A DNA stretch of 64,000 nt, from the NCBI RefSeq assembly GCF_014640175.1, contig NZ_BMGL01000004.1, forward strand, positions 62,001 through 126,000. The letters are read 5' to 3'. The translations under genes were made by a program, and so were the position numbers. This stretch comes from Psychroflexus salis. GTDB lineage: Bacteria; Bacteroidota; Bacteroidia; Flavobacteriales; Flavobacteriaceae. The notes under the pieces were generated by a model. That model saw only the letters and a program-made list of their open reading frames with translations, did no database searches and was not told the origin of the DNA. Shown piece by piece: positions 55,782-57,379 of the stretch (within the stretch, counting starts at the first letter, position 1; each line of letters starts with the position of its first letter).

Positions 55782-55854
55782 CGCGGGATAGAGCAGTAGG
55801 TAGCTCGTCGGGCTCATAACCCGAAGGTCACTGGTTCGAGTCCAGTTCCCGCTA
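55782..55854 (+). tRNA. initiator tRNA-Met (CAT)
   Basis: A full cloverleaf of 73 bases. The anticodon CAT is at 55815-55817 (position 34-36), and the anticodon stem carries the three G-C pairs (GGG/CCC) of initiator tRNAs. The first base C opposes a U instead of pairing, as initiators are unpaired at 1-72. The discriminator is A and CCA is not encoded. The recombinase gene on the other strand extends into the anticodon loop, so this tRNA is the attachment site of the element to its right and remains intact. Confidence 0.95.
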
Positions 55855-57379
55855 CTAAGTTCAAAAAGAGGTCATTTTCGACCTCTTTTTTATTTTTTAA
55901 TTTCTTCAATCTCTTACTGGCATTGAGAAGCAGTTGTATCGATTTTGTAAATTTAATGGTTGCAACTCTACCATCTTCAAAAACCAGTTTTTCTGAAAAG
56001 ATGCAGCCAAGAATTTTATTTTTAGTCTTACCATCAACTGATTTGTAGTATTCTACAAGATTTTCTAGCATTGGTATCTGTTTGTCAACATAATCTTTAA
56101 AAGGTGATGTTTGTTTATTGAGTTCGTCAATTTGGTTATTGATTTTGAATAGTTTAGAATTGATTGAGTTTTTCAATTCTTGATAATCTTCTGAAGATAG
56201 TTTAGCATCCATATACTCATTGTTAATAAACTCTCTTCTTTTGTTTAGCTTCTCCACCTCGAACTCTAAGTTCTTAATAGAACTTTTCCTGTTGGTTGAA
56301 CTGCTTTCAAAGGTTCGTTTGAGAATATTTCTATAGGTGCCGACCACCTTAGCAGAGAACTCTATTTTAGAAAGTATGTCCTCAACTTTTTTATGGAGAA
56401 TATCTATAGGATACCTATCACATTTTACATGGGGCTTGGTGCAGATGTAATAGTGATATTTTACACCTTTTCTTCCAGTAGATGCGTAAGCAGATAAGGA
56501 CCTTTGGTGTTTCTGACAGAAAAGGTGTCCCTTCAGTGGATAGAGGTTTGTTTTATCTGATTTAAAGTTCATTTTTCTTACCCTACCATTCAAGGCTTCA
56601 TTGGCAGCAGCAAATAGTTCTTCAGAGACTATCGCAGGATGCATTCCTGAAACAATCATTTGAGGTTGCTCACCTAATTCTTTAACTACTATTTTTCCTG
56701 AGTAAGTAATATTTCTGATAAGGTTAGGAAAATTACTTTTTGATATTTGAATTCCTTTAGAATTCATCCAACGTCTTATTTCGTCAGCAGTATTTATTCC
56801 AGCTGCCATTTTTTCAAAAGCCTCTTTTATTAATGTTGCGTCTTGGTTAAATTCAAGAGTAGAATCACCATTAATCCTAATGTTGTTATATCCAATAGGA
56901 GCTCTACCAGTGTAGCAACCGTTTTCTCTTGCCTTGCGAGTTCCTTCCTGTGTTCGTATTGATATTTTTGTATTTTCGATTTCTGGAAGTGCATAACTTA
57001 TAGCTTCTAGGAGTAAGGATTCTGGGTTGGTTTCATCGACCTGACCTTCTACAAATTCGACTTTACAACCCAATGCTAAAAGTTTAGCCTTTTCATTGAA
57101 TGACAGTTCTATTTTTCGAGAAAATCTGTCCACTCTAAGAATAACGATGGCATCAATAGCATTATCTGTTTTATTATTCGCTTTCACTAATGATACAATA
57201 CTTTTCCACTTAGGTCTGTTAAAATTCTTAGCTGAAAAGTCCTCACGGTAACATGCCAAGATGTTATATCCTTTTGTCTGACAATACCGTATAATAGTCT
57301 CTTCTTGATATCCTAACGAATAGCCCTGTTGCGCTTGTTCATCCGTGGATACGCGTGAATATACAATTACATTTTTCAT
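55814..57379 (-). CDS. large serine recombinase (integrase)
   Basis: A 521-residue site-specific recombinase. The resolvase catalytic domain begins with YSRVSTDEQ (nucleophile Ser11, with Arg9), followed by a recombinase domain at about 180-285, a zinc-ribbon region (LFCQKHQRSL, then CTKPHVKC) and a coiled coil at about 365-430. The last 14 residues (AGTGLEPVTFGL and the two before) are the antisense of the tRNA gene, and the stop TGA lies over the tRNA anticodon. It is the integrase of the element that begins here, and its reading frame depends on the host tRNA sequence. Confidence 0.94.
   Translation of the reverse strand: MKNVIVYSRVSTDEQAQQGYSLGYQEETIIRYCQTKGYNILACYREDFSAKNFNRPKWKSIVSLVKANNKTDNAIDAIVILRVDRFSRKIELSFNEKAKLLALGCKVEFVEGQVDETNPESLLLEAISYALPEIENTKISIRTQEGTRKARENGCYTGRAPIGYNNIRINGDSTLEFNQDATLIKEAFEKMAAGINTADEIRRWMNSKGIQISKSNFPNLIRNITYSGKIVVKELGEQPQMIVSGMHPAIVSEELFAAANEALNGRVRKMNFKSDKTNLYPLKGHLFCQKHQRSLSAYASTGRKGVKYHYYICTKPHVKCDRYPIDILHKKVEDILSKIEFSAKVVGTYRNILKRTFESSSTNRKSSIKNLEFEVEKLNKRREFINNEYMDAKLSSEDYQELKNSINSKLFKINNQIDELNKQTSPFKDYVDKQIPMLENLVEYYKSVDGKTKNKILGCIFSEKLVFEDGRVATIKFTKSIQLLLNASKRLKKLKNKKEVENDLFLNLVAGTGLEPVTFGL
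55863..55890. terminator. terminator hairpin of the tRNA, inside the recombinase frame
   Basis: Perfect 11-bp stem AAAAAGAGGTC/GACCTCTTTTT with a 6-base loop; on the plus strand a long T-rich tail follows (strong terminator for the tRNA). On the minus strand only five T follow. It lies inside the last codons of the recombinase gene. Confidence 0.85.

What the first reader, a model, noticed from the sequence alone, without database searches (positions are those of the whole stretch)
55814..55860. Recombinase reading frame completed by the antisense of the initiator tRNA
The last 14 codons and stop of the serine recombinase are the reverse complement of the tRNA-fMet gene; the stop TGA lies across the anticodon. 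Thus the integrated recombinase ends on host sequence. After excision the frame would run into whatever joins the right end, so the protein tail could differ between integrated and circular forms, and tRNA transcription would oppose that of the integrase. The tail AGTGLEPVTFGL occurs in other tRNA-targeting integrases, but its functional role is not clear to me.
Basis: partly seen in the sequence, partly recalled or inferred. Interest (0 to 1): 0.7.

Follow-up and report, generated by a model that had tools for sequence, protein, structure and literature searches.

The report
tRNA-targeting serine integrase, host-completed tail
A mobile DNA island is inserted exactly at the end of a bacterial tRNA gene, so that the last 12 amino acids of its own insertion enzyme are spelled by the host's tRNA gene read backwards; many related islands do the same at other tRNA genes and should make a differently ended enzyme when they are free.

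Summary
Observation confirmed, one detail corrected: ORF 57379..55814(-), 521 aa, overlaps tRNA-fMet (55782-55855, +) by 42 nt = 13 codons plus TGA. I first expected the tail to be element-borne (a tRNA 3' half in attP); the data refute that. The island's far end lies outside the window (contig C4:150216-150222, 32.4 kb away), shares only GCTACTA with the tRNA end and is followed by sequence homologous to a native tRNA-fMet 3' flank. So about 12 codons and the stop are host DNA; the joined circle would encode 523 aa ending LIDQSCSFKMFEI instead of AGTGLEPVTFGL. For a relative (G591), three genomes show the empty site. In this family 66 of 67 classifiable integrases read an antisense T-arm (hence GLEP) in one phase, at ten tRNA isotypes. 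The integrase's 3' coding end also carries a terminator for the tRNA. A right-arm motif mostly lies 5 bp further out than the tRNA T-loop, like the published attP/attB zinc-ribbon offset, so the T-loop is probably what is recognised; offsets of 3 and 4 also occur. Integration-dependent integrase C-termini are known (Mx8, rumA ICEs); serine integrases aimed at tRNA genes were stated to be unknown in 2014. Function of the tail switch: untested.

The parts
55782..55855 (+). tRNA-fMet (anticodon CAT), intact; carries the attL junction at its 3' end
   Evidence: ARAGORN; Rfam (to 55854)
55851..55857 (+). shared core GCTACTA of attL; crossover inside it, most likely at C55852|T55853 (inferred from arm symmetry in relatives)
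   Evidence: the other copy is at C4:150216-150222 (window-equivalent 88216-88222, outside the window)
55814..57379 (-). large serine integrase, 521 aa in the integrated form
55814..55852 (-). host-derived part of the integrase frame: AGTGLEPVTFGL + TGA, antisense of tRNA positions 33-71
   Evidence: and for a relative; exact 5' limit inferred
55863..55890 (+). terminator hairpin for the tRNA transcript (U-rich run follows to about 55898), lying inside the integrase coding sequence; probably also part of the integrase-side arm of attP
   Evidence: -14.3 kcal/mol, z -5.97; 53 of 56 elements have one; role as attP arm inferred
55853..64000 (.). left part of the 32.4-kb island; it continues to about C4:150217
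57674..59134 (-). island cargo: N6/N4 DNA methylase with ParB-like N-terminus

Best explanation
The ORF belongs to a large serine integrase whose attP lies across the 3' end of its own gene. The enzyme recombines attP with the 3' end of a tRNA gene (here tRNA-fMet) inside a short shared core (5-11 bp in the elements read; here GCTACTA). After integration the tRNA stays whole and host-encoded up to the core. The element supplies the sequence just downstream, which is at once the integrase's own 3' coding end and a new intrinsic terminator for the tRNA; the tRNA's native 3' flank is pushed to the far end (attR). The integrase frame now crosses the core into host DNA and ends on the antisense of the T-arm (GLEP), often at or near the anticodon. 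In the free circle the same frame runs into the element's other end and gives a different tail. Shown: anatomy, both ends in the window's genome, empty sites for one relative, terminator, phase lock, arm offset. Inferred: the exact crossover dinucleotide, that the zinc-ribbon domain reads the T-loop, and that the tail swap changes integrase activity (possible but untested).
For: Right end of the window's island: motif GCTGCAACTTT..GGGCTAC shared with islands at tRNA-Asn; a scan 'GCTAC + perfect-stem terminator' of 108 kb gives only attL and this site; its flank is 54 of 73 identical, z 11.4, to the flank of a tRNA-fMet 3' fragment in G013 and 50 of 73, z 7.9, to the flank of intact tRNA-fMet in G009. 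Empty sites: the G591 attR flank directly follows intact tRNA-Met in G1434, G1395 and G1357. In G153 the first 47 nt of the G342 attR flank (the terminator, 92%) directly follow tRNA-fMet. Terminator at attL in 53 of 56 elements against 90 of 1120 random windows; T content after the hairpin 0.57 on the tRNA strand, 0.20 on the integrase strand. Arm motif TTCG exactly 5 bp further out than the T-loop in G342a, G419, G980, G591, G781b and G1078b, and GNTGCA at offset 5 in 11 of 13 matches. At least 33 changes of target isotype on a tree of 72 integrases. Residues 497-521 of the integrated form are predicted with pLDDT under 50.
Against: No read of an excised circle or of the protein. Right ends were accepted for only 13 elements; for most of the 56 none convincing was found in the DNA fetched. 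A laxer terminator scan lists two more sites in the window's contig (C4 near 196.1 and 216.2 kb). Arm offset is 4 in G341, and TTCG sits at the wrong distance in G097c (end dropped as uncertain); G025 and G1035 lack it, and G025 has two further candidate ends sharing 21 nt with the tRNA end that I did not choose. In five other right-end-like sites in the genus of G591 the offset is 3, 3, 4, 4 and 5. The choice of ends in G980, G591 and G781b among three listed candidates was made after seeing the motif (each also has the strongest terminator of the three). For the window's own site no empty site was found: ligA, beyond attR, was in no relative's fetched tRNA-fMet flank. The flank of G342 beyond its terminator was not found after a tRNA in 199 genomes (capped list). 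In one search, 3 of the 11 relatives read (of 28 with a match) show the empty site; in 2 the same flank follows another tRNA (Glu, Arg), in 6 no tRNA was called; G591 itself holds a second copy of the flank, 87%, 10 kb away.
Confidence: 0.86

Rival explanations
1. Classical tDNA island: attP carries the tRNA 3' half, so tail and stop are element-borne and identical in both forms.
For: Five 3'-half fragments beginning exactly at tRNA position 32 exist in genus relatives, one of them directly at the end of a serine integrase (G003).
Against: In G003, G008 and G016 a tyrosine integrase (cluster c1; Pfam Phage_integrase in the G008 and G016 members) stands directly after the intact tRNA and before such a fragment, so these fragments are best ascribed to it; for the G013 and second G003 fragments, on other contigs, this was not traced. 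No such fragment in the window's genome; accepted serine-element right ends share 5-11 bp with the tRNA end region; empty sites.
Confidence: 0.04
2. The tail swap is a switch: the integrase made from the circle has a functional C-terminal helix, the integrated form has lost it, and this biases the reaction or damps the enzyme.
For: Circle-encoded tails of seven elements share G[QV]xSNxFxxDL or a close form: G342a, G980, G419, G591, G1129, G293a, G781b; G1078b and G025 are weaker. The frame is phase-locked in 66 of 67. In G341 the neighbouring phase of the arm reads FSNQFYEDARKLY. Mx8 integrase is reported less active after integration (PMC4701971, passages).
Against: GQxSN is spelled by the DNA arm motif itself; for xFxxDL the third codon position is only slightly more variable (0.39 against 0.31 and 0.30 over 11 rows; 0.42 against 0.37 and 0.28 with one row per genome), so DNA-level constraint is not excluded. 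G1129 and G293a were found by the motif, which also hits unrelated places. The window's own circular tail (LIDQSCSFKMFEI) does not show the helix motif clearly; the G341 tail is out of frame.
Confidence: 0.35
3. Neutral read-through: attP must sit beside the integrase gene, the gene has no stop of its own, and whatever follows is translated without consequence.
For: Host tails run from 10 to 51 codons in the 67 classified, L092 stops at the tRNA edge, and the tail is predicted disordered.
Against: Phase lock in 66 of 67 and the shared circular tails suggest that the frame across the core matters, though common descent contributes.
Confidence: 0.5

Closest known systems
Streptococcal ICEs in rumA with a single serine integrase (PMC4701971, passages read)
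   Same: att site inside the serine integrase gene; integrated and excised forms encode different C-termini and lengths; short direct repeats (2-21 bp)
   Different: target is a protein gene whose end is exchanged too; here the target is a tRNA gene that stays whole, and the coding end doubles as the tRNA's terminator
Myxophage Mx8 integrase (PMC6070905 and PMC4701971, passages; of the primary papers one was looked up and is not held)
   Same: attP inside int; integration creates a new 3' end of int; altered activity reported
   Different: tyrosine integrase; 112 residues replaced by 13
Islander-type tDNA islands (PMC4383910, passages)
   Same: integration at tRNA genes with the tRNA left functional
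   Different: tyrosine integrases with a tRNA fragment in attP and a displaced fragment; that 2014 paper states that serine integrases are not known to target tDNAs
A118/LI serine integrase (PDB 4kis; PMC3783163, passages)
   Same: homologous recombinase and zinc-ribbon domains; zinc-ribbon motif 5 bp nearer the centre in attB than in attP
   Different: not a tRNA target in that system as far as I recall
Integration-dependent immunity of mycobacteriophages (search listing only)
   Same: integration changes a protein's C-terminus because attP lies in its gene (recalled; the listing's abstracts name the system)
   Different: the gene is the repressor, not the integrase

Membership tests
Large serine integrase | Resolvase domain followed by Recombinase domain | tested here: met
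   Pfam PF00239 4.4e-23 and PF07508 1.2e-10
Large serine integrase | catalytic serine and resolvase arginines conserved | tested here: met
   S11, R9, D84, R85, R88 invariant in 34 aligned integrases; which of these are catalytic is recalled
Large serine integrase | C-terminal recombinase/zinc-ribbon domains like A118 integrase | tested here: met
   profile hits 4kis and 6dnw, about 5e-19, positions 166-427; long helices 343-390 and 396-422 in the model
Large serine integrase | short shared core; attP motif 5 bp further out than in attB | tested here: inconclusive
   met in the window's element (GNTGCA type) and in six TTCG elements; 4 in G341, 7 in L117, 3 and 4 in four further sites, motif absent in G025 and G1035, misplaced in G097c
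Large serine integrase | recombination activity | not testable with these tools
   needs an assay
tDNA island of the Islander kind | tRNA fragment displaced at the far end | tested here: not met
   7 bp shared in the window's island; no fragment in the genome
Elements with att inside their integrase gene (Mx8 / rumA ICE kind) | integration changes the integrase C-terminus | tested here: met
   all 12 joined ends read (two of them uncertain) give different tails; inferred from sequence, and almost any end would differ, so the empty sites carry the weight
Elements with att inside their integrase gene (Mx8 / rumA ICE kind) | activity differs between the forms | not testable with these tools
   needs an assay

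The most novel reading that the evidence does not exclude
A family of large serine integrases has solved tRNA-gene targeting by letting its zinc-ribbon domain read the universally conserved T-loop (TTCRA, the antisense of which spells GLEP). It can therefore hop between tRNA isotypes while keeping one geometry, and it uses the obligatory overlap of attP with its own gene to make two integrase isoforms, one for the circle and one for the integrated state, that differ in directionality.
Probability: 0.32. Interest if true: 0.8.

Novelty: new variant of a known kind. Interest (0 to 1): 0.62.

Why it matters
It contradicts the 2014 statement that serine integrases are not known to target tRNA genes, shows a family doing so at ten isotypes, and offers a simple recognition rule (T-loop in attB, the same kind of motif a few bp, mostly 5, further out in attP) that makes target choice testable. 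Island finders that look for a displaced tRNA fragment would miss these elements. It also gives many natural pairs of integrase C-termini for the open question of how serine integrases control direction. For annotators: GLEP-ended recombinases are host-completed frames, not a conserved peptide.

Tried and rejected
Hypothesis of an element-borne tail (tRNA positions 32-74 in attP): rejected, see first rival. Candidate right end of G342 at 21417: rejected, relatives carry the same intergenic region without any tRNA-fMet end. Candidate right ends in G097c and G1035: dropped as uncertain. Direct-repeat search of the tRNA region downstream: no match above 12 bp, taken as chance. 9-mer enrichment for right arms: uninformative as a ranking. 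ligA synteny as proof of the empty site: failed. G342 flank in 199 genomes: only its terminator part was found after a tRNA. Viral contigs: no relative by the pattern search; phages and plasmids: only distant serine recombinases (listed rows 27.2% identity or less). Paper searches for serine integrases in tRNA genes or for such tails; none found in a library of open-licence papers, so absence is weak evidence.

Full report
What is there. The ORF at 57379..55814 on the minus strand encodes 521 aa with Resolvase and Recombinase domains. Its last 42 nt (13 codons and TGA) lie on the antisense of tRNA-fMet 55782-55855. A profile of 34 aligned integrases matches the structures of A118 (LI) serine integrase.

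Where the other end is. The window is C4:62001-126000 of a 38-contig genome. No second copy of the tRNA-fMet 3' half was found in that genome (the one other site, two mismatches, lies in a tRNA-Arg). A right-end motif seen in islands at tRNA-Asn, G[CT]TGCA[AG]CTTT followed by the tRNA's last bases, occurs in the 108 kb downstream once: AAAGCTGCAACTTTGGTCAATTAGGGCTACTATGAAGAG. An independent scan for GCTAC followed by a perfect-stem terminator gave two sites in 108 kb, attL and this one (repeated, where rearranged 5-mers gave 0.02 hits each). A laxer terminator scan also lists two sites much further away, which lack the motif. The shared run is GCTACTA, island length 32,365 bp. The flank beyond it aligns 54 of 73 (z 11.4) with the flank of a tRNA-fMet 3' fragment in G013 and 50 of 73 (z 7.9) with that of intact tRNA-fMet in G009.

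Why I changed my mind. In the genus, five 3'-half fragments start at tRNA position 32, and one (G003) is the very end of a serine integrase. That suggested an identity block carrying the tail. But in G003, G008 and G016 a tyrosine integrase sits next to the intact tRNA in sense orientation, before the fragment (Pfam Phage_integrase for the G008 and G016 proteins), and the accepted serine islands share only 5-11 bp between their ends.

Empty sites. For G591 the flank beyond attR was searched in 119 genomes of its genus; 29 matched, G591 included. Of 11 relatives read, three (G1434, G1395, G1357) have it directly after the same intact tRNA-Met, in two it follows another tRNA, and in six no tRNA was called. 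This shows that the sequence completing the integrase frame is host DNA. Of the six, one looks like an uncalled tRNA (motif distance 16, as in a tRNA), and five have TTCG or TTCA 19, 19, 20, 20 and 21 nt before the core end and look like other insertions. G591 has a second copy of the flank 10 kb away, perhaps a tandem end. For G342 (199 genomes) only the first 47 nt of the flank, its terminator, were found right after tRNA-fMet, in G153 at 92%.

The two tails. Joining the ends gives for the window's element 521 aa ending VA-GTGLEPVTFGL when integrated and 523 aa ending VA-LIDQSCSFKMFEI in the circle. For relatives the circle tails are: G342a PTGQFSNHFQDDLKKINFK; G980 LTGQFSNHFINDLKILG; G419 EPEQISKHFLEDLERLN..; G591 LTGQISNFFLSDLQELANV..; G1129 ALAGQFSNRFVDDLRRLANLAV; G293a EPKGVKSNYFGEDL..; G781b EDRGQKSNLETLFEDLN..; less alike G1078b VTKLITNQVYLDLKKL.. 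and G025 EELKKISNSLLFELEKF... They resemble each other, but GQxSN is spelled by the DNA arm, the pattern also hits unrelated places, and the codon test for the rest is only mildly in favour of protein-level constraint. In G341 the tail is out of frame; the neighbouring phase reads FSNQFYEDARKLY.

Family survey. From, 101 loci were examined (searches turned at most 30 matches each into loci). 91 are near full length; 3 are duplicates; 15 have no intact tRNA near the stop (contig ends, fragments, other ends); 73 have one: Asn 16, Met 14, Arg 13, Leu 12, Lys 6, Glu 6, Pro 3, Ala, Phe, Val 1 each. In 67 the T-loop pattern could be found and 66 read it in the same phase, L188 in another; 6 were not classified, because their T-loop differs from my pattern; L092 stops at the tRNA edge. 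Host tails measure 10-51 codons in the 67. GLEP, GFEP, GIEP and RIEL are the T-arm read backwards. Named relatives are almost all Bacteroidota. A tree built without the tails needs at least 33 isotype changes among 72 integrases (FastTree; no shuffled control run).

Terminator. Directly after the tRNA, inside the integrase coding sequence, 53 of 56 elements have a hairpin with a U-run on the tRNA strand, against 90 of 1120 random windows; T content after the hairpin is 0.57 on the tRNA strand and 0.20 on the integrase strand. In the window: -14.3 kcal/mol, z -5.97. The coding block KNKKEVENDL is this hairpin.

Recognition. In tRNA the T-loop TTCRA ends 15-16 nt before the tRNA end (17 in a few). 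In accepted right ends TTCG motifs end 20-21 nt before it in G342a, G419, G980, G591, G781b and G1078b (offset 5), 19 in G341 (offset 4); G025 and the uncertain G1035 have none, and the uncertain G097c has one at offset -2. G342a, G419 and G341 came from the motif-free scan; G1078b was the only candidate of its element; G980, G591 and G781b were picked from three listed candidates after I had seen the motif, although each has the strongest terminator of its three. G591 is confirmed by empty sites. In the other subfamily GNTGCA gives offset 5 in 11 of 13 matches, many of them related or tandem copies; L117 gives 7 and a match in G967, probably chance, 0. Further arms in the genus of G591 give 3, 3, 4, 4 and 5. 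TTCGA occurs at 0.0009 per position. PMC3783163 (passages) reports that the zinc-ribbon motif of LI attB is shifted 5 bp towards the centre relative to attP. Symmetry of the arms places the centre at the C|T position of GCTAC most often: sole top in 5 of 10 elements, tied top in 2, not in G000, G781b or G341. That the zinc ribbon reads the T-loop is therefore a good inference, not a demonstration.

Structure. An AlphaFold2 model from 34 sequences (mean pLDDT 84, pTM 0.41) is ordered to about residue 495; residues 497-521 have pLDDT under 50. The circular form was not submitted because it is not contiguous in the window.

Known relatives. Integration-dependent integrase C-termini are published for streptococcal rumA ICEs (serine) and Mx8 (tyrosine) (PMC4701971, PMC6070905, passages). 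PMC4383910 (passages, 2014) says that serine integrases are not known to target tDNAs; in the passages seen of PMC10654092 (2023) tRNA sites are given for tyrosine systems of mycobacteria and none for serine ones. My searches found no later report, in an open-licence library only.

Verdict. The mechanism of integration is well supported; a role of the tail is open.

Noticed in passing
G003:C31, G008:C1, G016:C51 (L070, L062, L074): A second, unrelated set of islands with a tyrosine integrase in sense orientation uses the same tRNA-fMet, with a 43-nt 3'-half fragment starting at tRNA position 32 at the far end; in G003 it sits in tandem with a serine island.
   Followed up: partly
L119, L113, G293:C1 (L125/L258), G340:C2 (L124): Tandem arrays of small pieces bounded by serine-type right ends, some holding only the last 40-60 integrase codons (terminator plus core), like non-autonomous relatives; in G293 five such tail-coding ends lie within 3.7 kb.
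   Followed up: partly
G011:C7:251-386, G003:C31:69625-69892: Partial copies of the tRNA-fMet 5' half (positions 1-40) stand upstream of the intact tRNA.
   Followed up: no
window 57674-59134; L002 8900-15394: Island cargo: ParB-like methylase, helicase, Schlafen/AlbA-like protein, and an MmeI-like type IIG restriction-methylation enzyme.
   Followed up: partly
window 60169-61841 and 62128-62655: Small island genes without a PADLOC match (60169-60777, 60889-61365, 62128-62655) or not tested there (61473-61841).
   Followed up: no
L275, L278 (G1419, G1412): The terminator flank that follows tRNA-Met in empty sites follows tRNA-Glu and tRNA-Arg in other genomes, as if tRNA 3' flanks had been exchanged.
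   Followed up: no
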